Of a stretch of DNA of 64,000 nt, positions 1-36,011 are shown piece after piece. The notes under the pieces were generated by a model that was not told the origin of the DNA, did no database searches, and was given only the letters and a program-made list of their open reading frames with translations. The stretch lies in contig NZ_CANLZW010000012.1 in assembly GCF_947495625.1 (NCBI RefSeq), positions 1-64,000 of the forward strand. Direction: 5' to 3'. The translations under genes were made by a program, and so were the position numbers. Numbering within the stretch: the first letter of the stretch is position 1; each line of letters begins with the position of its first letter. This DNA is from an uncultured Cocleimonas sp. Lineage in GTDB: Bacteria; Pseudomonadota; Gammaproteobacteria; Thiotrichales; Thiotrichaceae.

Positions 1-1715
1 ACCGTGACCGGTACAGTCACCAGTGGCAACACCAGTAACGCAAGTGATACAGGAACGGTAACGATTACGGATAACGATATAGTATCGATTACTATCGGTG
101 ACCTTATGGTTACAGAAGATGTAGGTACAGCTAATGTGCCAGTAACTTTAAGTACACCAAGTTCAGTCGATACAGTGATTGATATAGTGACTTCAACAGG
201 TACAGCAGGTACGGACGATTACACTGTGACTACAACTACGGTCACGATCCCAGCGGGTCAAACTACAGTAAATGTTGTTATTCCAGTGACTGACGACAGT
301 ATTGATGAGCCGAATGAGACCTTTAGTGTTAACGGGACAGTGACCAGTGGAAACACCGCGAATACCGATCCGAGTGGTACGGTAACGATCACCGATAACG
401 ATGCGGCACCAACAGTAACGATCGGTGATGTATCTACGTCAGAAGATTCAGGAACAGTAACGGTCCCTGTGAGCATTGATATTGTGAGCTCAGTTGATAC
501 CGTGATTGATATCGTGACAGCGACCGGTGCAGCGGGTAGCACAGATTACACAGAGACTACGACCACAGTGACGATCCCAGCGGGTGAAACAACAGTTGAT
601 GTAACGATCCCGGTGATTGATGACAGTATTGATGAGCCGAGTGAAGACTTTAGTGTTAACGGTACAGTGACCAGTGGCAACACCGCGAATACCGATCCGA
701 GTGGTACGGTAACGATCACCGATAACGATGCGGCACCAACAGTAACGATCGGTGATGTATCTACGTCAGAAGATTCAGGAACAGTAACGGTCCCTGTGAA
801 CATTGATATTGTGAGCTCAGTTGATACCGTGATTGATATCACAACCTCTACCGGTACAGCGGGTACGTCAGATTACACAGAGACGACAACAACAGTGACG
901 ATCCCAGCGGGTGAAACAACAGTTGATGTAACGATCCCGGTGATTGATGACAGTATTGATGAGCCGAGTGAAGACTTTAGTGTTAACGGTACAGTGACAA
1001 GTGGCAACACCGCGAATACCGATCCGAGTGGTACGGTAACGATCACCGATAACGATGCGGCACCAACAGTAACGATCGGTGATGTATCTACGTCAGAAGA
1101 TTCAGGAACAGTAACGGTCCCTGTGAGCATTGATATTGTGAGCTCAGTTGATACCGTGATTGATATCACAACCTCTACCGGTACAGCGGGTACGTCAGAT
1201 TACACAGAGACGACAACAACAGTGACGATCCCAGCGGGTCAGACAACGGTTGATGTGACGATCCCGGTAACAGACGACAGCATTGATGAGCCGAGTGAAG
1301 ACTTTAGTGTTAACGGTACAGTGACCAGTGGCAACACCGCGAATACCGATCCAAGCGGTACGGTAACGATCACCGATAACGATGCTGCACCGACGGTAGC
1401 GATTGGAGATGTAACGACAGCAGAGGATTCTGTCACAGTGACAGTACCTGTAAGTATTGATGTGGTTAGCTCAGTTGATACCGTGATTGATATCGTGACA
1501 GCGACCGGTACAGCGGGTAGTGCAGATTACACAGAGACTACCACTACGGTTACGATCCCAGCGGGTGAAACAACGGTTAATGTAACGATCCCGGTGATTG
1601 ATGACAGTATTGATGAGCCGAATGAGACCTTTAGTGTTAACGGGACAGTGACCAGTGGAAACACCGCGAATTCCGATCCGAGTGGTACGGTAACGATCAC
1701 AGATAACGATGCTGC
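1..1715 (+). repeat. Tandem 327-bp coding repeats (109 aa each)
   Basis: The string GATGAGCCGA recurs at 304, 631, 958, 1285 and 1612, an exact 327-bp spacing, and long stretches between copies are identical in DNA. The array covers at least five units and continues past the left edge. The nucleotide-level identity suggests recent duplication or gene conversion, and assembly collapse is a real risk here. Confidence 0.95.
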
Positions 1716-8581: not shown

Positions 8582-8961
8582 TGGGTGTTTAATATATTTA
8601 TTAGAAATTAATACTCCTTTCTAATTAAATAATATTACCATCACTTATAATTAAAATTCATATAGACTAGATTTTCGTTTGAGTCTACCTCATAAGCAAC
8701 GTCAATAAAGTTAGAGTCGCTTATCAATCTATTCGGCTCGTTATTTTTCTTAAACTAAATAGAATTTATTCAGGACTAGGTTAATTTTTTGTTATAAGGG
8801 TTTTACCCCAATAGGGATATTCAGAAACACTAATATACGGGTATACTGTTCGAATCAATTTTCGACCAAGAAGTTTTTATTGTTAATATTAACGTTTATT
8901 AATCGTTCAAAAAGACTTTTTGCTTAACCTTATTTATAAAAAGATTTAAGAGGAATATCCA
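8582..8961. other. 380-bp intergenic region with a promoter-like segment
   Basis: AT-rich, with no open reading frame I would call. It contains the NarL-like inverted repeat at 8804-8819 and a possible -10 element TATACT at 8842-8847, putting the site centre at about -42 of a predicted start near 8854. AGAGGA just upstream of the ATG at 8962 is a good ribosome-binding site. Confidence 0.5.
8804..8819 (+). promoter_or_regulatory. NarL/LuxR-type 7-2-7 inverted repeat, site 1
   Basis: TACCCCA-AT-AGGGATA. The two heptamers form an imperfect inverted repeat with a 2-bp spacer, the geometry known for NarL/NarP-type sites. The same motif occurs upstream of dsrA and of the DsrC paralogue at 17.8 kb. 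It lies 143 bp upstream of the 64-aa gene. Confidence 0.55.
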
Positions 8962-9156
8962 ATGAATCAGGAATATTACGATGCAGTTGTTGCAATGGAA
9001 AAAGCAGGTGTGGATTCTGAGTATCTACAAGGCTGGCAGGGTGGGTACCTTGTAAATCCTGAGCGTGAAGAGCAACGCGTTACTGATGCATACGAAGCTG
9101 GTTATGCTGACGGTACTGAAAAGAATATGGATGGTTACAAAGAGTGGGTTAAGTAA
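8962..9156 (+). CDS. Small 64-aa protein, faintly RMF-like
   Basis: 64 aa, acidic, soluble, no signal peptide. It has two glycine/tyrosine segments (QGWQGGYL at 24-31 and AYEAGYADG at 44-52). The second resembles the GYxAG segment of ribosome modulation factor, but the match is short and no function should be taken from it. AGAGGA lies at a good distance from the ATG. The gene stands alone, with its own promoter region carrying the NarL-like site and its own terminator. That site is shared with dsrA, so expression together with sulfur oxidation genes is plausible. It is a real gene by RBS, promoter and terminator; function unknown. Confidence 0.7.
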   Translation: MNQEYYDAVVAMEKAGVDSEYLQGWQGGYLVNPEREEQRVTDAYEAGYADGTEKNMDGYKEWVK

Positions 9157-9928: not shown

Positions 9929-10026
9929 ATTGATTTCCAGTTGGTATATGGCGGAATTTATATGGGAATTATAGGTATCTCTTAAGGAAAAGCGAATACC
10001 TCTTTAAAACCTTGTATTATTCATTT

Positions 10027-11106
10027 ATGGATAAGCAGTTAAAAGATGTTATTGATACGGTGCAACACAATTGTCACATAGCTGATGCAAGGCATGCGGG
10101 AGACTATACCTTGTGTGTGTATCTACTCAAAATGCGCGAAATGTATCGTTGGGAACAAAGTATAGATTTCAAGACCATGTTGACGACAGACGATGTAGGC
10201 GACTGGTTAACCAGTAGAGAAGGTGTTTGGGATGAGCTCGAAGAGCAAGAATATAAGAATCTGGAAATCGATGAGAAAACGTTTAAACCCTTTGAGAACG
10301 AATTAATCAACAGCACACTGGACGATAAAAAACTGGTATATAACGCTGGTTTAGGCATTCGTAGTCGCCCACATTTCTTTATTGCTGAACTCGAAAAATT
10401 CATACAACACGATGACTATACTATCTTTATTTCTAATAAAGAATTTGCGCGAGATATGGCTGCTCCACCTGCGATGGCACAGGGTAAAAATATCTTTGTT
10501 AGACGCGAATCTTTAAGACGTGTTATTTGGGAAATTCTGGATGATGCCAGAGTGGCAGGTTTAGATAATCCGCTCACTCGTGCCATGAGTTTCTATGACT
10601 TCGAAACGGATCCTGAAACGGCAATCAATCAAATGACCGAAGTTGAAATTGAGTATGTGATTGAACATGAAATTGGTGAAGTCAAAGCAGGTGAGTTATT
10701 AGGAAAATTAAACGTAGCTAATGATGGTGATCAAGTCTGGAATGAAATGCTGGATACGTATTCACAGACTCATGCAGAAATTATGCTAAGAGCAATTAGA
10801 GATCATATAGCTGATTCTATAACTACTTTACCCAAGCTTTTAGAAGACGTCAGTAAGGGGGAAAATATGGCCTCATTACATTTCTATTTCGGTAATCTAA
10901 CAGCGATGAGGAAGCACTTGGCTCCAAAGTTAGTGGATGCTTATCAACAATGGAATGAGACCGGTAGTTTAGATCTGATTCAACAGAGTGCTGATCTCTC
11001 TAAAAATCATTGGTTGAAGTTATCCCAACAATTAATCGAGCAATTTCTGGCAGCTAAAGATTCGTCAACAATTGAAGAAATCATAACTGAAAATAAATTG
11101 ATATGA
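10027..11106 (+). CDS. Sfum_1244 family protein (uncharacterised)
   Basis: About 359 aa from the ATG at 10027; an in-frame TTG at 10012 would add five residues but is less convincing. The N-terminal segment (NCHIADARHAGDYTLCVYLL) and following MREMYRWEQ are what I associate with the uncharacterised Sfum_1244 family; this is recall, not a search. The protein is soluble and helical with a conserved-looking HEIGE segment around residue 215, which might bind metal but is unproven. Its stop overlaps the start of the next gene (ATGA at 11103-11106), so the two are translationally coupled. Confidence 0.65.
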   Translation: MDKQLKDVIDTVQHNCHIADARHAGDYTLCVYLLKMREMYRWEQSIDFKTMLTTDDVGDWLTSREGVWDELEEQEYKNLEIDEKTFKPFENELINSTLDDKKLVYNAGLGIRSRPHFFIAELEKFIQHDDYTIFISNKEFARDMAAPPAMAQGKNIFVRRESLRRVIWEILDDARVAGLDNPLTRAMSFYDFETDPETAINQMTEVEIEYVIEHEIGEVKAGELLGKLNVANDGDQVWNEMLDTYSQTHAEIMLRAIRDHIADSITTLPKLLEDVSKGENMASLHFYFGNLTAMRKHLAPKLVDAYQQWNETGSLDLIQQSADLSKNHWLKLSQQLIEQFLAAKDSSTIEEIITENKLI

Positions 11107-11684
11107 GTGAAATAGTAGAAGTTAAGCCTGGTAGTTTTCTATTTGAAATCAAAGATGCATTGCCTGATTTTTTGTGTGACGACATGGTGGCTCGTTTTGA
11201 GAAAAACCAGGCTGATCAATATCAGGGTCGTGTGGGTTCTGCGATGACGGATAATACTCAGTTGAAAAAAACCACTGACTTAGTGGCTAGTGGCAAAGAA
11301 CATTGGAAGGATGTCGATAAAAATCTATTTCGTTCATTGGCGATGGCGTTAAAGAGCTTTAAAGACAAGTATCCTTATTTCGCTGATATGAGCCGTTATA
11401 AAGATATGGGTTATAATTTACAGCGCTATGAGCCGGGCGAGTATTACCACTGGCATGTAGATGCGGATAATTTAGAGCTGGCATCACGTCAGTTGGTTGC
11501 ACTGTGGTATTTAAATGATGTTGAACAGGGTGGAGAGACTGATTTTATACATCAGCAGGTTTCAATTACGCCAGAAAAAGGTAAGCTGGTTTTATTTCCG
11601 CCATTCTGGACTCATGAACATAGAGCAGCAGTTGTCGAAAAAGGCACAAAATATATAGCAACTACCTGGATTACATTTCGATAG
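11103..11684 (+). CDS. 2OG-Fe(II) oxygenase, PKHD type
   Basis: 193 aa. A prolyl-4-hydroxylase-like double-stranded beta-helix fold is shown by the iron-binding HxD pair (H118, D120 in YYHWHVD), a distal His (H171 or H173 in FWTHEH) and a downstream basic residue (K180 or K183) for 2-oxoglutarate. The strand LVALWYLND followed by GGETDF is typical. It would hydroxylate a protein or small-molecule substrate that cannot be named. It overlaps the upstream Sfum_1244-like gene by 4 bp, so they form one operon and may share a target. Confidence 0.85.
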   Translation: MSEIVEVKPGSFLFEIKDALPDFLCDDMVARFEKNQADQYQGRVGSAMTDNTQLKKTTDLVASGKEHWKDVDKNLFRSLAMALKSFKDKYPYFADMSRYKDMGYNLQRYEPGEYYHWHVDADNLELASRQLVALWYLNDVEQGGETDFIHQQVSITPEKGKLVLFPPFWTHEHRAAVVEKGTKYIATTWITFR

Positions 11685-16101: not shown

Positions 16102-16425
16102 TTATCTTGTTTCTAAATCGTACAGTGTCATGTCACCTTCCGTATTAAGGTGAAGCGCATAGGCGTTGGGAACACGCGATAGAATGTATCCAGCCATGAG
16201 TGTTCCTGTTTCTTTATTATTAGTCTCTAAAGCCGTTAGAATGCGATCTCCGACGATTTGGCAGCGTTGTGTTAAGTCAGGGTTTTCAATCCACGAACGA
16301 CTCATTTGATAGCCTTGGTCCATGTCTTTATCGATCATGTCGAAATACTCTCTGGCATCAGTGATTATTTCATCAGGAACGTGAATGTCCTGCTCATGTT
16401 CATCAACAAAGATTTTAAGTATCAT
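16102..16425 (-). CDS. Hypothetical protein, 107 aa
   Basis: 107 aa, acidic, soluble. The start is a hydrophobic strand followed by acid-rich sequence (MILKIFVDEHEQDIHVPDE); later DKDMDQGYQMSRSWIENPD and LMAGYILSRVP. AAGGAAG upstream of the ATG is a good ribosome-binding site. It stands alone, divergent from the PiuC-like oxygenase 87 bp away. The sequence looks well-formed and conserved, but I do not recognise a domain or function. Confidence 0.6.
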   Translation of the reverse strand: MILKIFVDEHEQDIHVPDEIITDAREYFDMIDKDMDQGYQMSRSWIENPDLTQRCQIVGDRILTALETNNKETGTLMAGYILSRVPNAYALHLNTEGDMTLYDLETR

Positions 16426-16512: not shown

Positions 16513-17193
16513 ATGTTATTAATTATTAAAGATGTTCTTAACGAAAATCAATTAAAAGTAATTTTAATGTTACTTAATAATGCTGATTTTGTGGATGGTA
16601 AATTATCAGCGGGTAAAGAAGCGGTAAAAGTAAAAAATAACGTTGAATTAGCACAACAAAGTCCATTGCATGATCAGTTGAATCAAATGGTTATGCCTTC
16701 ATTACTGCAACATCCTGAGTATCAAGCGAGTGTCTTTCCTTTAAAAGTAGCAACCCCATTCTATGCCAGATACAAAGAAGGAATGGAATATGGGTTTCAT
16801 GTTGACGACCCAGTGATGGGTTCTGCCTCTGGTTCTATGCAGAGCCGCTATCGATCTGATATATCCACGACAGTTTTTTTAAATGACGATTATGAAGGTG
16901 GAGAATTATTGATTAAAACTGCCTTTGGTGAACAGAAAATAAAGCTCTCTGCGGGTGATGCCGTTGTTTATCCCTCCAGCAGTTTGCATAAGGTGACAAA
17001 AGTTACTAAAGGTGAGCGCTTAGTTGCAGTTACGTGGGCACAGAGCATGGTTAAAGATAATACCCAGCGCGAATTGCTGTATGAATTAGGTCAGGCTAGA
17101 GAAACGCTTCTTGAGAAAAATCCGAATAGTGATGAAACTGCCAAGGTGAGTAATGTTTATGCGAATCTGGTGCGTCGATGGAGTGAGTTGTGA
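16513..17193 (+). CDS. ybiX: PKHD-type Fe(II)/2OG hydroxylase (YbiX/PiuC family)
   Basis: 226 aa, the usual length for this family. Iron ligands H96 and D98 (YGFHVDDPVMG) and H159 (SSSLHKV), and 2OG-binding R169 (KGERLVAV). The central RSDISTTVFLND and EGGELLI strands match the family, as does the C-terminal helical extension. Family members are often linked to iron uptake, but no TonB receptor gene is nearby, so the substrate is open. No strong ribosome-binding site is visible before the ATG. Confidence 0.88.
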   Translation: MLLIIKDVLNENQLKVILMLLNNADFVDGKLSAGKEAVKVKNNVELAQQSPLHDQLNQMVMPSLLQHPEYQASVFPLKVATPFYARYKEGMEYGFHVDDPVMGSASGSMQSRYRSDISTTVFLNDDYEGGELLIKTAFGEQKIKLSAGDAVVYPSSSLHKVTKVTKGERLVAVTWAQSMVKDNTQRELLYELGQARETLLEKNPNSDETAKVSNVYANLVRRWSEL

Positions 17194-17337: not shown

Positions 17338-17529
17338 TTACTTCCAGAAATTTGCTTCTTCAGAAGCAAGGTCACGAACCTGGTTTGTCAGTTCCTGATA
17401 ACGCTCACGATAAGCTTTCCACTCACCAACGTAATAATCTTCGGCATCAAACTCGCCGCTTTGCTCGTATTTAATGAATTTAGCCTGCATATCAAGCATC
17501 TCTTGGATGAGTTCTGATTTGTTGCTCAT
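17338..17529 (-). CDS. Small 63-aa protein divergent from the DsrC paralogue
   Basis: 63 aa, highly charged and helical (likely a helical hairpin), no cysteines. GGAGAC sits at proper spacing before the ATG and a strong terminator follows, so it is a real gene. It shares a 249-bp divergent promoter region with the RspA-like gene, including the NarL-like site, 74 bp from its start. I think similar small proteins occur in other sulfur oxidisers, but this is recall. Function unknown. Confidence 0.7.
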   Translation of the reverse strand: MSNKSELIQEMLDMQAKFIKYEQSGEFDAEDYYVGEWKAYRERYQELTNQVRDLASEEANFWK

Positions 17530-17778: not shown

Positions 17779-18117
17779 ATGGCACTTGAAGTTAATGGCA
17801 ATTCTATAGCAACTACTGAAGCAGGTTATTTAGTTGATTTAAATGACTGGAATGAAGATGTTTGTAAAGCACTAGCAGAAGGTGAAGGTATAGAGCTTAC
17901 TGACAGACATATGGATGTGGTTGAATTCTTGCGTGATGAGTATATTAATAATGGTGGCAACCAGCCAATGGAACGTGCAATTACCAAGCACATGTCTGGT
18001 GTGTGGGGTGAAAAACTTAAGGGTAAAGATCTTTATAATCTATTCCCTGGCGCACCTAGTAAGCAGGGCTTAAAGGTTGCCGGTTTACCAGCGACAACTC
18101 GAAAAGGCGGTTATTAA
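17779..18117 (+). CDS. rspA: DsrC/TusE-family protein lacking both redox cysteines (RspA type)
   Basis: 112 aa. The fold signature matches DsrC in this window: MALEVNG..., AGYLVDL, ELTDRHMDVVEFLRDEY, LYNLFPGAPSKQG. The C-terminal arm reads KQGLKVAGLPATTRKGGY, while true DsrC reads KQACKYAGLPKPTGCV, so both sulfur-carrying cysteines are gone. It cannot act as a persulfide or trisulfide carrier like DsrC. Such homologues have been called RspA (regulatory sulfur-related protein) and are thought to be regulatory. AGAGGA precedes the ATG. The promoter region carries the motif also found upstream of dsrA. The family call is firm; the role is inferred. Confidence 0.88.
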   Translation: MALEVNGNSIATTEAGYLVDLNDWNEDVCKALAEGEGIELTDRHMDVVEFLRDEYINNGGNQPMERAITKHMSGVWGEKLKGKDLYNLFPGAPSKQGLKVAGLPATTRKGGY

Positions 18118-28131: not shown

Positions 28132-28512
28132 TTATTCATCCGCTGCAAAATCTACGTGAATATGGTTACCGTCTGGATCCCATATATTGATTTGTACCAG
28201 TTTGAATGCCGATAAATCCACGCGGCGATACTCTATATCCATTGCCTTGAGTTTGTCTTCAAACTCATGAAGGCCAGAAGCTGAAAAAGCAAAATGCTCA
28301 AGTTTTAAATGTGCTTCAGAACCAATGCCCTCAGGCCCATCAATGCCAATTAAATGTACCATGACGATATCATTCGCGTACATCCATGCTCCTGGAAAAG
28401 GAAAGTTAGGTCGATCTCCAACCCGCATGCCCAATACCTCTATATACCAATTGATCATATTCTCAAGCTGAATCGTTCTCAGGTTTACATGATCGAGCTT
28501 TTCAATTTGCAT
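28132..28512 (-). CDS. VOC (glyoxalase/bleomycin-resistance fold) family protein
   Basis: 126 aa, one VOC unit pair. Probable metal ligands: H9 (KLDHVNL), the His/Glu region HLKLEHFAF, and the C-terminal HIHVDF. The INIWDPDGNHIHVDF end is typical of glyoxalase-like dioxygenases and lyases. The substrate cannot be told. The gene is 255 bp downstream of the cas6-like gene on the same strand, with an interspersed element between, so it may be a separate unit. Confidence 0.85.
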   Translation of the reverse strand: MQIEKLDHVNLRTIQLENMINWYIEVLGMRVGDRPNFPFPGAWMYANDIVMVHLIGIDGPEGIGSEAHLKLEHFAFSASGLHEFEDKLKAMDIEYRRVDLSAFKLVQINIWDPDGNHIHVDFAADE

Positions 28513-28767: not shown

Positions 28768-29460
28768 TTATTCTGTAGGCTTCAGTGTCTTAATACTCTT
28801 GTGCGGAAGAAATATACCACAACCTAATTCTCTTGAACCACCCAGACCAAGTTGTTGAATTTTAATGGAAGTATCACTGTCTAAATCAGCTATCATCAGA
28901 TGTTTGGTGTAAAGATCAGCATCAGGAATGGTGATGTTATGGCTTTTGCCACACAGCATTTTCTTTACTTTGAAGCCGGTTTTAGTCTTGATTTCCTTAG
29001 CCATTTTGCTGAGAAAAGTGTTTTCATCTTCATTGGGTTCGCATAACACATAGCGTGCGAATAATACGCCGGCGTTGGTGAATACTTTCTTTTTAGCTTT
29101 GCCCACTAGTAGATCATGACCGTTGATATTTAAAGTCTGGCCTACCATTTTGCTCGCTTCGTCATATTTTTCGAGAGGAATGCGTATCGTGAGTTTGGTT
29201 CTTTTTGAGGGATATAAAACGGCACCTTCTTCGTCATCTTCGGGGCGCATCCAGCCGTTATTGCTTTCAGCAACGTGGATTTGGTGAATGCCAGCGAAAT
29301 CGTAGTCCGTCAACCAGGGGAGATGCTTGATAATTTCTCTAGACAGAGGCCATGCGTGATTCAAGGGAAGTGTTTTGCTTTGAATCGCAAATACCATATC
29401 TATCACGTCATCAGGTACTTGATAGGGTAATGTTTTGTCTTCGTCTTCTTCCCAGAACAT
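28768..29460 (-). CDS. Orphan Cas6/Cmx6-family CRISPR RNA endoribonuclease-like protein
   Basis: 230 aa. The layout matches Cas6 of the MYXAN subtype (Cmx6): an N-terminal ferredoxin-like half with LPLNHAWPLS (a His that could be catalytic), GIHQIHVAESNNGW, a middle segment NGHDLLVGKA and LFARYVLCE, and the C-terminal glycine-rich RNA-binding loop LGLGGSRELGCGIFLPHK. In CRISPR systems such proteins cut the repeat RNA. No other cas gene or CRISPR array is in the window. It is third in an operon with a TauD-like dioxygenase and a 65-aa protein, divergent from dsr. Family call by motif recall; the substrate here is unknown. Confidence 0.75.
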   Translation of the reverse strand: MFWEEDEDKTLPYQVPDDVIDMVFAIQSKTLPLNHAWPLSREIIKHLPWLTDYDFAGIHQIHVAESNNGWMRPEDDEEGAVLYPSKRTKLTIRIPLEKYDEASKMVGQTLNINGHDLLVGKAKKKVFTNAGVLFARYVLCEPNEDENTFLSKMAKEIKTKTGFKVKKMLCGKSHNITIPDADLYTKHLMIADLDSDTSIKIQQLGLGGSRELGCGIFLPHKSIKTLKPTE

Positions 29461-29503: not shown

Positions 29504-29701
29504 CTAGCGCGCTGATTCAAATGCTAAATTTAACTGATCGTGCCAATCGCTAGGGCGATCATCAAACGCAGGTGGTTCGATATCTACTTGAAAATGAAGC
29601 TCGCCTGTTTCCACGGCGGTTTTTTGTATGCAGCTTTTGAGTTCTTTAAAACTGGATACGTTGTCTCCTTCTTTTAACAGGAGTTCACTGAGTGAAAGCA
29701 T
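29504..29701 (-). CDS. Small 65-aa protein between the dioxygenase and cas6-like genes
   Basis: 65 aa, acidic, predicted mixed alpha/beta; one cysteine (KSCIQ). Spaced 37 bp from the upstream dioxygenase and 43 bp from the cas6-like gene on the same strand, so co-transcribed. No recognised domain. Its constant neighbourhood should be checked: it could be a partner of the cas6-like protein, but nothing in the sequence proves it. Confidence 0.6.
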   Translation of the reverse strand: MLSLSELLLKEGDNVSSFKELKSCIQKTAVETGELHFQVDIEPPAFDDRPSDWHDQLNLAFESAR

Positions 29702-29738: not shown

Positions 29739-30698
29739 TTATGTGTTATTTTCTGTGACTGCTAAGGGTAATTCATCATAAAAACGACCACGAAAGAGTA
29801 AACGTTTTTTTTCTGGATTATCAGAATCCACATAAGCAGTACGGCAATGCAGTACATTTCTACAAATAAGTCCTTCTCCTGCCTTTAAGGTATGTTTGAT
29901 GATGTACTTTGAATTTGAGCTAGAACTCTGGCATGAGTCATCTTCAAACAATTTTTCTAAAAATGCCACTGCTTCTAATGTGGGGGAATCTTGTTTCCAT
30001 TCAATATTTCTTTTGCGGGCAGAATAACGCATGTGCAACTGACCTTGAGAATTTAGTGAGAAAACTGGTCCCGTCTGTGCGGGTCTAATCACTTTTCCAT
30101 CCAGTATATTGGCAGGAATAGTCAATACATCGGCTTGCATAAGGGCTCTAATATAATCTGGATTTTCATCGCGCAACAGAATATAGGCTATTTCGTGATC
30201 CATAAATTTTGATTCGCCTCCTTCAACTGCCGCTTGAGCGCAATGTAATAGCATCGAATTTATAGTGTTCTGCGGTAAATTATAATAACCATCAGTGTGC
30301 CAACTTAATCGTTTGGTGGAATAGGGAATGTATTCATGTTGTCCAGCATGGCTGGTTTGAGTTATTGAAGTCAGGCTATCGTTTCCTGCACAAATATTTC
30401 CGTCTAATTTATTCAGCCCAAGTTTGTTAGCGAGTGACAAAATGATGCGTTTGGTTTGATCAATATCGTAGCTTTGATGATCCTTGATTTGATAGACAGA
30501 AAGACTGTAATCGTCACATTGTTTTATGATGCTATTTAATTCTTTTTTAGAAGGCGATTTACCTTCTTCAATAATGCCGTAAAAGTGGGGGGGTGACATT
30601 TTATAGGCACTATCTACCCTTGCAAGTTTTGCATCTCGCCAGCGTAAATATTCTTCTTGATGGGCTTTACTATTGGCTAAACTAAAGGGTGAAGACAT
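29739..30698 (-). CDS. TauD/TfdA-like 2-oxoglutarate dioxygenase
   Basis: 319 aa, usual family length. Iron ligands H134 and D136 (LSWHTDGYY) and distal H284 (VLHCRTAY), followed by the Arg-rich RLLFRGRFY region for 2OG. TauD-like enzymes oxidise small carbon or sulfonate compounds; the substrate is not predictable here. First gene of the leftward operon with the 65-aa and cas6-like genes, and divergent from dsrA. Residues 34-46 are encoded by a copy of the interspersed element. Confidence 0.82.
   Translation of the reverse strand: MSSPFSLANSKAHQEEYLRWRDAKLARVDSAYKMSPPHFYGIIEEGKSPSKKELNSIIKQCDDYSLSVYQIKDHQSYDIDQTKRIILSLANKLGLNKLDGNICAGNDSLTSITQTSHAGQHEYIPYSTKRLSWHTDGYYNLPQNTINSMLLHCAQAAVEGGESKFMDHEIAYILLRDENPDYIRALMQADVLTIPANILDGKVIRPAQTGPVFSLNSQGQLHMRYSARKRNIEWKQDSPTLEAVAFLEKLFEDDSCQSSSSNSKYIIKHTLKAGEGLICRNVLHCRTAYVDSDNPEKKRLLFRGRFYDELPLAVTENNT
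30570..30598 (+). repeat. Interspersed G-rich element inside the dioxygenase gene
   Basis: AATGCCGTAAAAGTGGGGGG, then GTGACA, antisense to the gene; seven G and TA changed to TG. It encodes MSPPHFYGII near the N-terminus, in a different frame from the chpA copy. Confidence 0.7.
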
Positions 30699-30826: not shown

Positions 30827-30842
30827 TACCCCCTAAGGGATA
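30827..30842 (+). promoter_or_regulatory. NarL/LuxR-type 7-2-7 inverted repeat upstream of dsrA, site 3
   Basis: TACCCCC-TA-AGGGATA, in the 314-bp divergent region between the dioxygenase operon and dsrA, 171 bp upstream of the dsrA start. A possible -10 (TATATT, 30880-30885) would put the site centre near -57. The same motif occurs at 8804 and 17603. Confidence 0.55.
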
Positions 30843-31012
30843 GGATAAATATTTGATAACCTCCCATGGGTGAGATTCTTATATTAGGGCTTAACAACTA
30901 GACTATATCCATATCGCAAATATACCAATTCTAAAGACGGTGTAATGCGGCTTAAATTTAGTAACAGAATGATTTGATGTTCTGTTAAGTGATTAATTAA
31001 TTGGAGGCAATA

Positions 31013-32275
31013 ATGGCTGATATCAAGAAGTATCCTACGCCGATGTTGGACGTTTTAGAAGATGGCCCTTGGCCGAGCTTCATTACTGGCATTAAGAACA
31101 TGCGTGACAATCATCCTGATGAGCGCATCAATAATGTAACTAACGGCTTGTTAGGTCAGCTTGAACATTCTTACGAAACAAAGATGGGTTACTGGAAAGG
31201 TGGCACTATCTCTGTATTCGGATACGGCGGTGGCATTATTCCTCGCTTCTCAGAAGTTGGTGACAAGTTCCCTGAATCTAGAGAGTTCCACACATTGCGT
31301 GTTCAGCCAACTCCTGGTAACTACTATACAACTGACATGATGCGTAAACTTGCAGACAGTTGGGAGAAATGGGGTTCAGGCCTTCAGACTTTCCACGGTC
31401 AGACTGGTAACATCATGTTTATCGGTGCTGATAATGCTAGCTTCCAGCATTTCTTTGACGAGATCAACGACTACGGTTGGGATCTTGGTGGTGCGGGTCC
31501 ATGTGTACGTACAGCGATGTCATGTGTTGGTGCGGCGCGTTGTGAGCAATCTTGTGCAAACGAGCATGCGGTTCACCGTCATCTAGTAAATAACTTTACA
31601 GATGATGTTCATCGTCCGGCGCTTCCTTACAAGTTTAAGTTTAAAGTTTCTGGTTGTCCTAACGATTGTCAAAATGCTATCGAGCGTGCTGACTTTGCCG
31701 TTATCGGTACCTGGAGAGATCACAAGAAGATAAATCAAGATCATTGGAAAGCATTTGTTGCTGACAAAGGTGTTGAGTATGTAATGGATAACGTTATTTC
31801 ACGTTGTCATTCTAAGTCTCTTTCTTTAGGCGAAGATAATTCATTGATTGCGGATGAAAGCAACTGTGTTCGTTCTATGCATTGTATGAATGTTGTGCCT
31901 AAGGCTATCAGCCCTGGTGATGATAAAGGTGTAACCATTCTTTGTGGTGGTAAGCGTACGCTGAAGATCGGTGACTTGATGGGAACAGTACTTGTTCCAT
32001 TCATGAAGCTAGAGACTGCAGAAGATTATGAGCAGATCGTTGAGCTTGCTGAAGAAATCATTGATTTCTGGGCAGAGAATGGTCTAGAACATGAGCGTAC
32101 AGGTGAGATGATTGAGCGTATTGGCTTAGTTAACTTCCTGGAAGGTATTGGAGTAGATCCAGATCCAAACATGATTGCGCAACCACGCAACGTATCTTAT
32201 GTACGTACCGATGGTTGGGATGAAGCTGCCGAAGAGTGGTTCAACCGCAAACGTGAAGAGAAAGCTGCTAGTTAA
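31013..32275 (+). CDS. dsrA: Reverse dissimilatory sulfite reductase, alpha subunit
   Basis: 420 aa. The start is the ATG at 31013, after GGAGG at 31003-31007. Siroheme/[4Fe-4S] ligand cysteines lie in the CVRTAMSC and CEQSC segments (about residues 163-185), with more in FKVSGCPNDCQN and the inserted ferredoxin-type region (CVRSMHCMNV). With DsrB it forms the siroheme enzyme that releases sulfite from DsrC-bound sulfur in the cytoplasm. First gene of the dsr operon. The presence of dsrEFH and dsrL downstream points to the oxidative direction. Confidence 0.98.
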   Translation: MADIKKYPTPMLDVLEDGPWPSFITGIKNMRDNHPDERINNVTNGLLGQLEHSYETKMGYWKGGTISVFGYGGGIIPRFSEVGDKFPESREFHTLRVQPTPGNYYTTDMMRKLADSWEKWGSGLQTFHGQTGNIMFIGADNASFQHFFDEINDYGWDLGGAGPCVRTAMSCVGAARCEQSCANEHAVHRHLVNNFTDDVHRPALPYKFKFKVSGCPNDCQNAIERADFAVIGTWRDHKKINQDHWKAFVADKGVEYVMDNVISRCHSKSLSLGEDNSLIADESNCVRSMHCMNVVPKAISPGDDKGVTILCGGKRTLKIGDLMGTVLVPFMKLETAEDYEQIVELAEEIIDFWAENGLEHERTGEMIERIGLVNFLEGIGVDPDPNMIAQPRNVSYVRTDGWDEAAEEWFNRKREEKAAS

Positions 32276-34726: not shown

Positions 34727-35059
34727 ATGGCACTCGAAATAGATGGTCAATCAATTGAATTAGATGAAGAAGGTTATTTAGTTGACCTTAGTGCATGGAC
34801 GCCTGAAATTGCTAAAGCATTAGCATCAGGTGAAGATGTAGAATTAACAGATGAGCACTGGGATATCATTAATTTCCTTCGTGAATATTACGAAGAGTAC
34901 CAAATTGCTCCTGCAGTTCGTGTTCTAACTAAAGCTGTTGGTAAGCGTTTAGGTAAAGATAAGGGTAACTCAAAATACCTTTACTCTTTATTCCCATACG
35001 GTCCTGGTAAGCAAGCGTGTAAGTACGCTGGTCTTCCTAAGCCAACAGGTTGTGTATAA
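34727..35059 (+). CDS. dsrC: Sulfur carrier DsrC
   Basis: 110 aa with both C-terminal arm cysteines (C98 and penultimate C109 in KQACKYAGLPKPTGCV). It carries sulfur as a persulfide or trisulfide between DsrEFH, DsrAB and the membrane complex DsrMKJOP. TAGGAGAG before the ATG is a strong ribosome-binding site. Followed by two strong RNA hairpins, which suggests its transcript is kept at a higher level than dsrMKLJOP. Contrast with the cysteine-less paralogue at 17.8 kb. Confidence 0.98.
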   Translation: MALEIDGQSIELDEEGYLVDLSAWTPEIAKALASGEDVELTDEHWDIINFLREYYEEYQIAPAVRVLTKAVGKRLGKDKGNSKYLYSLFPYGPGKQACKYAGLPKPTGCV

Positions 35060-35087
35060 GCCCTGAGCTTATAACGTAATCTAAAGT

Positions 35088-35120
35088 TTTCGGGGAGTAT
35101 AAGCCCCCCGAATTCTTTTT
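35088..35120 (+). terminator. Terminator-like attenuator hairpin between dsrC and dsrM
   Basis: TTCGGGG (35089-35095) pairs with CCCCGAA (35106-35112), then TTCTTTTT. A partial stop here would separate high dsrABEFHC from lower dsrM-P expression. Confidence 0.65.
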
Positions 35121-35180
35121 CTAAAACTCACCATTTTTTGGCCTTTTTTAAGTTCGATGGGTACTTGTGAGTTTTAGAAA
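35118..35180 (+). other. Long inverted repeat (14-bp perfect arms) after dsrC
   Basis: TTTCTAAAACTCAC (35118-35131) and GTGAGTTTTAGAAA (35167-35180) with a 35-nt loop that has smaller internal pairing (CCAT/ATGG). In RNA it forms a strong stem between the attenuator hairpin and dsrM, perhaps an RNase-processing or stability element. Confidence 0.75.
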
Positions 35181-35249
35181 GAGAAGTAAGAAGTAAATAA
35201 CTAAGAATTACAATAAGTTATAGATTAAAAGAATTTTAGGAGCTACATA

Positions 35250-36011
35250 GTGCAAATGACCATTGGTGTTATTTATGCAGTATTATTTTGGGCTGCGACA
35301 CTTGTTCTTGTACTAGGTGTTGCAAATAAAATCCGAATATACGCAAAAGTCCCAGCACCACTAAAAATACCTACAACACCGGCCCCAGTTACGCAGGGCG
35401 GAGTAGTGCTTCGAATGATGCAAGAAGTATTCTTATTCAAGAGTCTTTTTCGTTCGGATAAATTACTGTGGGCATTAGGTTTTCTGTTTCATTACACGAT
35501 GCTTTTGATCGTGATCCGTCACTTCAGATATGTACAAGAACCAGTCTGGGGCTTCGTGCAATTCATGCAGCCTTTTGGAAAGTACGCTGGGTTCTTATTT
35601 ATTATCGGTCTATTAGGGCTACTAGCGCGTCGTTTGCTTATTGATCGTGTACGTTACATAACTGCACCTTCTGATATTGCGATGTTGTTATTGTTAATCA
35701 TGATAGGCGTTTCTGGCTTGTTTATGTCCTTTGTGAGCCACACTGATATCGTGATGGTTAAAGCATTTTTCAGAGGTCTTTTGCTTTTTGACTGGCAGCC
35801 GCTACCTACTGATGCAATCTTGCTTCTGCATTTGGGATTAGTTGCAATTTTGATGCTTATCTTCCCAATTAGTAAATTACTACATGCTCCAGGTATTTTC
35901 TTTAGTCCAACCCGTAATCAAATAGATAACCCACGTGAGAAAAGACATCTTGCTCCTTGGGCTGCTGAGTTGGAAAAACAAAACAAAATGTTTTTGGATG
36001 AGTTGGAGTGA
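35250..36011 (+). CDS. dsrM: Respiratory complex subunit DsrM (NarI-like cytochrome b)
   Basis: 253 aa, GTG start after TAGGAG. About five or six membrane segments (residues ~5-25, 70-90, 110-130, 145-165, 190-210) with His residues in helices such as FLFHYTML that would ligate heme b, like NarI. It passes electrons between the quinone pool and DsrK in the DsrMKJOP complex. Confidence 0.95.
   Translation: MQMTIGVIYAVLFWAATLVLVLGVANKIRIYAKVPAPLKIPTTPAPVTQGGVVLRMMQEVFLFKSLFRSDKLLWALGFLFHYTMLLIVIRHFRYVQEPVWGFVQFMQPFGKYAGFLFIIGLLGLLARRLLIDRVRYITAPSDIAMLLLLIMIGVSGLFMSFVSHTDIVMVKAFFRGLLLFDWQPLPTDAILLLHLGLVAILMLIFPISKLLHAPGIFFSPTRNQIDNPREKRHLAPWAAELEKQNKMFLDELE

What the first reader, a model, noticed from the sequence alone, without database searches (positions are those of the whole stretch)
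28768..29460. Orphan Cas6/Cmx6-like RNA endonuclease gene next to the dsr operon
The protein has the full Cas6/Cmx6 motif set, including the C-terminal glycine-rich loop LGLGGSRELGCG, yet no cas gene or CRISPR array is present. It sits in an operon with a dioxygenase and a 65-aa protein, divergent from dsrA. A stand-alone Cas6 kept in this setting may have been reused for another RNA.
Basis: partly seen in the sequence, partly recalled or inferred. Interest (0 to 1): 0.72.

Follow-up and report, generated by a model that had tools for sequence, protein, structure and literature searches.

The report
Cas6-like protein of sulfur oxidation
A protein that looks like the RNA-cutting enzyme of bacterial CRISPR immunity turns out to be an almost constant companion of the sulfur-oxidation (dsr) genes in the bacteria examined, with or without CRISPR, which suggests that it does an unknown RNA job in their energy metabolism.

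Summary
Window 28768-29460(-) encodes a real Cas6/Cmx6 protein (PF09559 E 6.5e-53; TIGR02807 above cut-off; predicted fold Z 23 to a solved Cas6). Its genome has no Cas1 or Cas3 above cut-off, no DevR-type Cas7 and no second Cas6. It is not a stray orphan. Of 369 Gammaproteobacteria genomes 118 carry this subfamily, and it follows dsrA almost one to one (both 111, Cas6 only 7, dsrA only 8, neither 243), with no significant association with Cas1. In the 83 of 118 loci with dsrA on the same stretch, dsrA is always upstream and divergent; the usual block is TauD-like oxygenase, p65, Cas6, cysteine-less DsrC-like protein, p63 or an alternative partner. Five genomes of about 1 Mb keep it. The catalytic histidine is kept in 117 of 118. 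Reuse outside CRISPR is supported; RNA cutting and its target are not shown. A class-wide palindrome near dsrA looks like a DNA operator. A dsrC-dsrM hairpin is the best candidate RNA site, but four reduced genomes examined lack it and keep Cas6. My paper searches listed no description.

The parts
28768..29460 (-). Cas6/Cmx6-family protein, 230 aa; predicted catalytic His35 and C-terminal loop LGLGGSRELGCG (residues 204-215)
   Evidence: PF09559 6.5e-53, TIGR02807 above cut-off; AlphaFold2 model pLDDT 83, Z 23 to 8fcu_B; His at position 35 in 117 of 118 class members
29504..29701 (-). p65: 65-aa partner protein, no known family; motif D-I-E-P-P-x-x-x-D-R-P-x-x-W in its own bacterial family
   Evidence: no Pfam/NCBIfam/PADLOC/PHROGs match; motif invariant in 11 sequences; found in 104 of 118 Cas6 genomes and 1 of 251 others
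29739..30698 (-). TauD/TfdA-family oxygenase (Fe(II)/2-oxoglutarate type, recalled for the family), first gene of the block
   Evidence: PF02668 4.7e-17; within 6 kb of Cas6 in 81 of 118 loci
17779..18117 (+). DsrC-like protein without cysteine (dsrC2); in many other genomes just downstream of Cas6, here about 11 kb away
   Evidence: PF04358 2.1e-31; DsrC-like gene within 6 kb of Cas6 in 101 of 118 loci, a count that can include the true dsrC; on the same strand within 3 kb in 88, of which 69 have no Cys and most end in RKGGY
17338..17529 (-). p63: 63-aa partner protein, no family above cut-off; elsewhere usually after dsrC2
   Evidence: within 6 kb of Cas6 in 55 of 118 loci; nearly mutually exclusive with the alternative partner c0
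31013..32275 (+). dsrA, divergent neighbour and start of the dsr operon (the other dsr gene names are recalled from the known gene order, except dsrC)
   Evidence: TIGR02064 match in own genome at C12:31046-32257, E 1e-176
30827..30842 (.). conserved palindrome TACCCC-CTAA-GGGATA between TauD and dsrA (probable DNA operator)
   Evidence: class-wide motif; only two exact TAYCCCNNNNGGGRTA sites in the 4.6-Mb genome, reversed control pattern none
30862..30875 (+). second conserved element TCCCATGGGTGAGA
30899..30904 (+). TAGACT, probable -10 box of dsrA, 72 nt from the palindrome start
   Evidence: same 72-74 nt spacing in 24 of the 26 loci (of 47 with the strict palindrome) that have a -10-like match in range
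35089..35112 (+). hairpin between dsrC and dsrM, candidate (unproven) RNA processing or stabilising site
   Evidence: z -4.6 for 35040-35250; stem of 8 bp or more with score 20 or more in 70 of 93 loci against 6 in letter-shuffled sequences

Best explanation
The gene encodes a domesticated Cas6: a Cas6-fold protein with the conserved catalytic histidine that has left CRISPR and become a standing accessory of the oxidative Dsr pathway. Shown here: family, predicted fold, independence of CRISPR, near one-to-one co-occurrence with dsrA, fixed divergent gene order, recurring partners (p65, TauD-like oxygenase, cysteine-less DsrC-like protein, p63 or c0), and retention in five genomes of about 1 Mb. 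Inferred: it is a metal-independent endoribonuclease (His35 chemistry, glycine-rich loop gripping RNA) that cuts at a defined site in an RNA made during sulfur oxidation, most likely a dsr-locus transcript, with p65 as its direct protein partner and the cysteine-less DsrC-like protein tying it to the sulfur-carrier state. Confidence: about 0.95 for a dsr-linked, CRISPR-independent Cas6 subfamily; about 0.55 that it works by cutting an RNA; about 0.35 that this RNA is a dsr transcript.
For: Family and fold. Own genome without Cas1 or Cas3 above cut-off and without DevR. Order level: 51 of 63 genomes, 41 of 46 high-quality ones, 8 of 8 genera. Class level: Cas6/dsrA 111/7/8/243 (dsrA counted at E below 1e-30), Fisher p 7e-75; Cas6/p65 104/14/1/250; Cas6/Cas1 50/68/85/166, p 0.13. 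dsrA upstream and divergent in 83 of 83. In a phylum draw of 398 genomes the four hits besides the own genome, all weaker, also sit divergent from dsrA with a DsrC-like and a TauD gene. His35 in 117 of 118, Arg87 and Arg93 in 118 of 118, Gly215 in 116 of 116; the six CRISPR-type plasmid relatives have the same His, Arg93 and glycines. Reduced genomes G203, G316, G411, G101 and G348 keep the block and have no Cas1 match.
Against: No RNA target was found. No strong excess of synonymous codon conservation in the eight dsr genes tested. The Cas6-dsrC2 spacer is not structured (70 loci, mean z -0.16). The class-wide palindrome lies upstream of the probable dsrA promoter, so it is not in dsrA RNA. 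The dsrC-dsrM hairpin is absent in the four reduced genomes examined that keep Cas6. One member has Asn (L192, G119) and one distant member Tyr (G773) in place of the catalytic His. p65 was not detected in the four distant members. Five of 46 high-quality genomes of the order lack the gene, one of them in two contigs (G028); whether they have dsrA was not tested. The statistics ignore shared descent. Gene neighbourhood cannot show cleavage.
Confidence: 0.55

Rival explanations
1. An RNA-binding but non-cutting regulator: the Cas6 fold holds an RNA (as Cas6 stays bound to its product in Cascade, recalled) and controls dsr translation or mRNA life, with p65 and the DsrC-like protein as sensors.
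For: Same conserved fold and glycine-rich loop; partners include a mostly cysteine-less DsrC-like protein; the closest solved relative has Asn where the His aligns.
Against: The catalytic His is kept in 117 of 118 sequences over a whole class, which pure binding would not demand.
Confidence: 0.2
2. The fold was reused for something other than RNA, for example as a scaffold in assembly or maturation of Dsr proteins together with the TauD-like oxygenase and the DsrC-like protein.
For: Partners are protein or small-molecule type genes; no conserved RNA target found; kept in reduced genomes, which tend to drop regulation (the tendency is general knowledge).
Against: The Cas6 active-site and glycine-loop residues are conserved.
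Confidence: 0.18
3. It processes the dsrC-dsrM hairpin to leave a stable dsrC mRNA (a specific version of the best explanation).
For: The dsrC-dsrM spacer is strongly structured: mean z -2.83 in 93 loci, 63% below -2; a stem of 8 bp or more with score 20 or more in 70 of 93 against 6 shuffled; window z -4.6.
Against: Stem sequence is not conserved in the 45 loci printed; the four reduced genomes examined lack the hairpin yet keep Cas6; such hairpins also arise as plain stabilisers or terminators (15 of 75 stems of 8 bp or more are followed by TTTT).
Confidence: 0.15
4. A leftover of, or a helper in trans for, a CRISPR-Cas system.
For: NCBIfam would name it type I-MYXAN Cas6/Cmx6; 50 of 118 carriers have a Cas1.
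Against: No significant association with Cas1 (p 0.13; 68 of 118 carriers have none); beside dsrA in 83 loci; no CRISPR array in 1.76 Mb held around 118 loci, the single repeat found being a head-to-tail tandem repeat.
Confidence: 0.03

Closest known systems
Cas6/Cmx6 of type I-MYXAN CRISPR systems, PF09559 / TIGR02807, e.g. on cyanobacterial plasmids
   Same: Same family by profile; same His, Arg93 and glycine-rich GCG loop.
   Different: On the plasmids five of six sit beside cas3, two of them read further into cmx8, cas5, cas1 and cas2. This one sits with dsr genes, has an NGW segment (Trp70 in 118 of 118, a gap in all six plasmid sequences) and p65, DsrC-like and TauD neighbours.
Cas6 of a type I-B CRISPR-associated transposon, PDB 8fcj/8fcu
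   Same: Closest solved structure: Z 23, rmsd 2.3-2.5 over 195-198 residues, 20% identity.
   Different: Part of a Cascade complex in a transposon system; Asn at the aligned His position.
Pyrococcus furiosus Cas6 proteins, PDB 3ufc and 3i4h
   Same: Cas6 fold, Z 15-16.
   Different: 11-14% identity; CRISPR role (recalled).
RspA-type (cysteine-less) DsrC-like proteins (name recalled, not from a call)
   Same: The partner dsrC2 is DsrC-like and mostly without cysteines; the Solemya velum symbiont paper notes dsrC homologues outside the dsr operon lacking the two cysteines (PMC4287430, passages).
   Different: A link to Cas6 or p65 is not mentioned in the passages read, and 'CRISPR' has no occurrence in that text.

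Membership tests
Cas6/Cmx6 protein family (PF09559 / TIGR02807) | Profile score above curated cut-off | tested here: met
   180 bits (cut-off 26.7) and 105.8 (cut-off 98.85)
Cas6/Cmx6 protein family (PF09559 / TIGR02807) | Cas6 (two RAMP-domain) fold with C-terminal glycine-rich loop | tested here: met
   Model aligned over residues 16-223 to a solved Cas6, Z 23.1; loop Gly205, 207, 213, 215 conserved
Cas6/Cmx6 protein family (PF09559 / TIGR02807) | Catalytic histidine at the start of the first helix (role recalled from studied Cas6 enzymes) | tested here: met
   His35 in 117 of 118 class members; helix 36-46 in the model; six of six plasmid CRISPR relatives have His there
Cas6/Cmx6 protein family (PF09559 / TIGR02807) | Endoribonuclease activity | not testable with these tools
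   Needs purified protein
Type I-MYXAN CRISPR-Cas system | Linked cas3, cmx8/cas8, cas7, cas5, cas1, cas2 | tested here: not met
   Own genome: no Cas1 or Cas3 above cut-off, no DevR; Cas5 and Cmx8 were not searched; neighbourhoods of the 118 loci show dsr-type partners
Type I-MYXAN CRISPR-Cas system | CRISPR array with repeats cut by this Cas6 | tested here: inconclusive
   None in the window or in 1.76 Mb around 118 loci; the rest of the genomes could not be scanned for arrays
Dsr (dissimilatory sulfite reductase) gene set | Co-occurrence with dsrA | tested here: met
   111/7/8/243 in 369 genomes
Dsr (dissimilatory sulfite reductase) gene set | Physical linkage to the dsr operon | tested here: met
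   83 of 118 loci have dsrA on the same stretch, 83 of 83 divergent; of the other 35, 29 genomes have dsrA elsewhere or beyond the stretch read, 6 have no dsrA match and end near Cas6
Dsr (dissimilatory sulfite reductase) gene set | Requirement for sulfur oxidation | not testable with these tools
   Needs a deletion mutant

The most novel reading that the evidence does not exclude
Oxidation of sulfur through Dsr in Gammaproteobacteria includes a dedicated RNA-cutting step run by a Cas6 that has been taken out of CRISPR, together with small unknown proteins and a DsrC-like protein that cannot carry sulfur: an RNA-processing module as a core part of an energy pathway.
Probability: 0.4. Interest if true: 0.92.

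Novelty: new variant of a known kind. Interest (0 to 1): 0.8.

Why it matters
Cas6 is known as a CRISPR-RNA maturation enzyme. Here a whole subfamily, named by standard profiles as a CRISPR protein, is tied to a central energy pathway across many families of Gammaproteobacteria, including genomes reduced to about 1 Mb. If it cuts RNA, it shows a CRISPR ribonuclease in non-immune use and points to an unknown RNA step in sulfur oxidation, testable with one deletion and one active-site mutant. If it does not, the Dsr pathway still has a set of near-constant accessory proteins whose role is open. Either way, CRISPR surveys that count this gene as evidence of CRISPR are misled.

Tried and rejected
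CRISPR service in trans: rejected on the lack of significant association with Cas1 and the absence of arrays near the gene. The one array-like hit (L224, G158) is a head-to-tail tandem repeat.

The class-wide palindrome TATCCC-N4-GGGATA as a Cas6 RNA target: it could form a hairpin, but its start lies 72-74 nt upstream of a -10-like box in 24 of the 26 loci that have such a box in range (2.5 expected from shuffles over the 47 loci with the strict palindrome; the other 21 had no box by my pattern). It therefore reads as a DNA operator. The strict pattern matched 47 of 110 loci; the fitted motif scored over 10 bits in 99 of 110, without a shuffled control for the fit. In the own genome one of the two sites is about 140 nt before an Alvin_2107-family gene, but the pattern was found before that gene in 0 of 28 other loci. 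In the window with two mismatches allowed the palindrome is no more frequent than chance (2 found, 1.6 expected).

Embedded RNA element in dsr coding regions: the best eight-codon windows of eight dsr genes exceed the gene mean by at most 24% (top z 4.3, in dsrC); the largest excess of any gene was in Cas6 itself (46%, z 3.6), not followed up. Other spacers: dsrA-dsrB mean z -1.18 and dsrA leader -1.10 are mildly structured, dsrH-dsrC and dsrK-dsrL not; Cas6-dsrC2 not. Rfam: no match in the window at gathering scores. PHROGs: none for Cas6, p65 or p63.

Caspase-1 hits in the structure-sequence search (E 0.1 and above for the profile) are taken as noise. The VOC (glyoxalase) gene 28132-28512 is beside Cas6 only in Cocleimonas among the loci read; a weak 29% match lies about 2 kb away in L056. 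So it is not part of the block.

p65 structure: three helices, pLDDT 77; no fold search was made with it. The first spacer-folding script timed out and was split.

Distribution outside the class was not settled: the phylum draw's five hits (the own genome among them) were all in the same class and most unmatched rows were not shown. Chlorobi, Alphaproteobacteria and sulfate reducers were not tested as such.

Full report
What is there. The window belongs to a relative of Cocleimonas in the Thiotrichaceae (the protein of C. flava is 92% identical). The 230-aa product of 28768-29460(-) matches Pfam PF09559 over its whole length (E 6.5e-53) and NCBIfam TIGR02807 above its curated cut-off. A profile of 15 relatives finds one convincing solved structure by sequence, the Cas6 of a type I-B CRISPR-associated transposon (E 1.9e-15). 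An AlphaFold2 model from 13 sequences (mean pLDDT 83) matches that protein with Z 23.1; the next rows are other Cas6 chains (Z 15-17, several from Pyrococcus furiosus) and Thermus Cse3 (Z 12-13). So it is a Cas6-fold protein, not an unrelated family.

CRISPR context. The own genome (4.6 Mb, completeness 100) has one PF09559 gene and no PF10040 gene. It has no Cas1 above cut-off (one match at E 0.25), no DevR-type Cas7, and only below-cut-off Cas3-core matches, a model that rings in all 14 control genomes (over cut-off in 6). The window has no array. A simple array finder, checked on a synthetic array, gave one hit in 1.76 Mb around the 118 related loci, and that is a tandem repeat. It did see arrays in two of six short stretches around plasmid relatives; annotation shows cas3 beside the gene in five of those six, the sixth (Gloeobacter) having no other cas gene annotated near by.

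It is a near-constant companion of dsr. In the order, 51 of 63 genomes have it, 41 of 46 among high-quality genomes, in 8 of 8 genera; five high-quality genomes lack it, including G028 in two contigs, and their dsrA status was not tested. In an even draw of 369 Gammaproteobacteria genomes, 118 have it. A dsrA match at E below 1e-30 is present in 119 (112 over the curated cut-off; the 217 matches at E 0.001 include weak ones that I take for ordinary sulfite reductases). Both are present in 111; seven have only Cas6, eight only dsrA, 243 neither (Fisher p 7e-75). The p-value ignores shared descent; by genus the carriers are 87 of 272. In all seven Cas6-only genomes the contig ends within 2.7 kb on the side where dsrA would lie, and one (G378) shows a dsrA piece there. 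I looked at six of the eight dsrA-only genomes: in five the upstream side is cut by a contig end, in one (G272) it is not. Cas1 shows no significant association: 50 of 118 carriers against 85 of 251 non-carriers (p 0.13).

Gene order. For all 118 carriers I read the stretch around the gene (the window for its own genome). In 83 dsrA is on the stretch, and in 83 of 83 it lies upstream and divergent. The usual order is dsrA< TauD> p65> Cas6> dsrC2> p63>, or dsrA< TauD> p65> c0> Cas6> dsrC2>. Within 6 kb of Cas6 there is p65 in 97, a DsrC-like gene in 101 (this may include the true dsrC), TauD in 81, p63 in 55 and c0 in 44 of 118. c0 and p63 nearly exclude each other: p63 only 44, c0 only 40, both 1, neither 16, with 17 loci too near an end. 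In the window itself dsrC2 (17779-18117) and p63 (17338-17529) are about 11 kb away. In a further draw of 398 genomes labelled phylum, the four hits other than the own genome (all of the same class, 103-134 bits) again sit divergent from dsrA with a DsrC-like gene and a TauD-family gene; p65 was not detected in them. Five genomes of 1.0-1.1 Mb (G203, G316, G411, G101, G348) keep TauD, p65, Cas6 and dsrC2 beside dsrA and have no Cas1 match.

Conservation of the active site. Of 118 sequences, 117 have His at position 35, just before the first helix, where studied Cas6 enzymes carry their catalytic His (that role is recalled, not from a call). Arg87, Arg93 and Trp70 are kept in 118 of 118, and Gly215 in 116 of 116. 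The six plasmid relatives share His, Arg93 and the glycines but have a gap at Trp70. In a tree rooted on one of them, the 119 dsr-type sequences separate on a stem of 0.91 substitutions per site; support is 0.90 for the 115 close members and 0.59 when the four distant ones are included.

The partners. p65 has no match in Pfam, NCBIfam, PADLOC or PHROGs; 104 of 118 Cas6 genomes and 1 of 251 others have it, and at least one of the 14 misses (G348) shows it in the neighbourhood reading. dsrC2 is DsrC-like (PF04358), but 69 of 88 copies have no cysteine and most end in RKGGY, so those cannot carry sulfur on a C-terminal cysteine as DsrC does (role recalled). TauD belongs to PF02668. c0 is about 230 aa with no family match.

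Search for the target. (a) A palindrome TATCCC-N4-GGGATA lies about 100-290 nt upstream of dsrA. A fitted motif scores over 10 bits in 99 of 110 loci and the strict pattern is found in 47 of 110. Its start is 72-74 nt from a -10-like box in 24 of the 26 loci that have one in range. That fixed spacing, upstream of the probable transcription start, fits a DNA operator and not a dsrA RNA element; it could still lie in the divergent TauD transcript. (b) The dsrC-dsrM spacer is strongly structured (mean z -2.83 in 93 loci; window z -4.6), the dsrH-dsrC and dsrK-dsrL spacers are not. The stem sequence is not conserved, and the four reduced genomes examined lack it though they keep Cas6. (c) No strong excess of synonymous conservation in eight dsr genes. 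(d) No structure between Cas6 and dsrC2. (e) No Rfam family in the window. So the target is open.

Interpretation. The most likely mechanism is site-specific RNA cutting in the service of the Dsr pathway. The RNA, the role of p65 and the link through the DsrC-like protein are inferences from neighbourhood and conserved residues. Because reduced genomes lack the hairpin but keep the block, a function more basic than fine control of dsrC is possible.

Literature. Ten searches were available and nine were answered. None listed a paper that, by title or abstract start, describes a dsr-linked Cas6. I opened passages only: in PMC10952691, PMC7540712 and PMC5728499 cas6 appears in a CRISPR context. 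PMC4287430 notes dsrC homologues without the cysteines. PMC3575380 notes that cas6 genes are sometimes found detached from other cas genes. PMC8269255 mentions an Alvin_2107 homologue in a figure legend. The other listed papers were not opened. Most subscription papers are not in the library, so prior notice there cannot be excluded.

Noticed in passing
window 30827-30842 and 8804-8819: TAYCCC-N4-GGGRTA occurs exactly twice in the 4.6-Mb genome: between TauD and dsrA, and about 140 nt before an Alvin_2107-family 'globule sulfur oxidation' gene. A class-wide version sits upstream of dsrA with fixed spacing to the promoter: a candidate operator of an unknown dsr regulator.
   Followed up: partly
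window 35089-35112: Strong hairpin between dsrC and dsrM in most loci examined, mostly without a T-run behind it, but absent in four reduced genomes.
   Followed up: partly
L117:7755-8438 and 43 other loci: c0, an uncharacterised protein of about 230 aa between p65 and Cas6, and p63 behind dsrC2 are near-perfect alternatives (40 / 44 / 1 both), as if one replaced the other.
   Followed up: partly
window 8962-9156, 10012-11106, 11103-11684, 16102-16425, 16513-17193: Alvin_2107-family, Sfum_1244-family, two 2OG-Fe(II) oxygenases and an unknown 107-aa protein recur near the Cas6/dsr block in a number of genomes: a wider set of sulfur-linked genes with several oxygenases.
   Followed up: partly
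L192 (G119), L242 (G773): Catalytic His replaced by Asn and by Tyr in two otherwise intact, dsr-type Cas6 proteins.
   Followed up: no
L259 (Gloeobacter morelensis plasmid): A Cmx6-type Cas6 near a phosphoadenosine-phosphosulfate-reductase-family gene and a cupin gene, with no other cas gene annotated in the 6.6-kb stretch.
   Followed up: no
window 163-1712: Tandem repeat of 327-nt units (4.7 copies) inside a very long open frame, perhaps a repetitive surface protein.
   Followed up: no
database annotation: TIGR02807 and PADLOC models name this dsr-linked subfamily a CRISPR Cas6, so CRISPR surveys may miscount it.
   Followed up: yes
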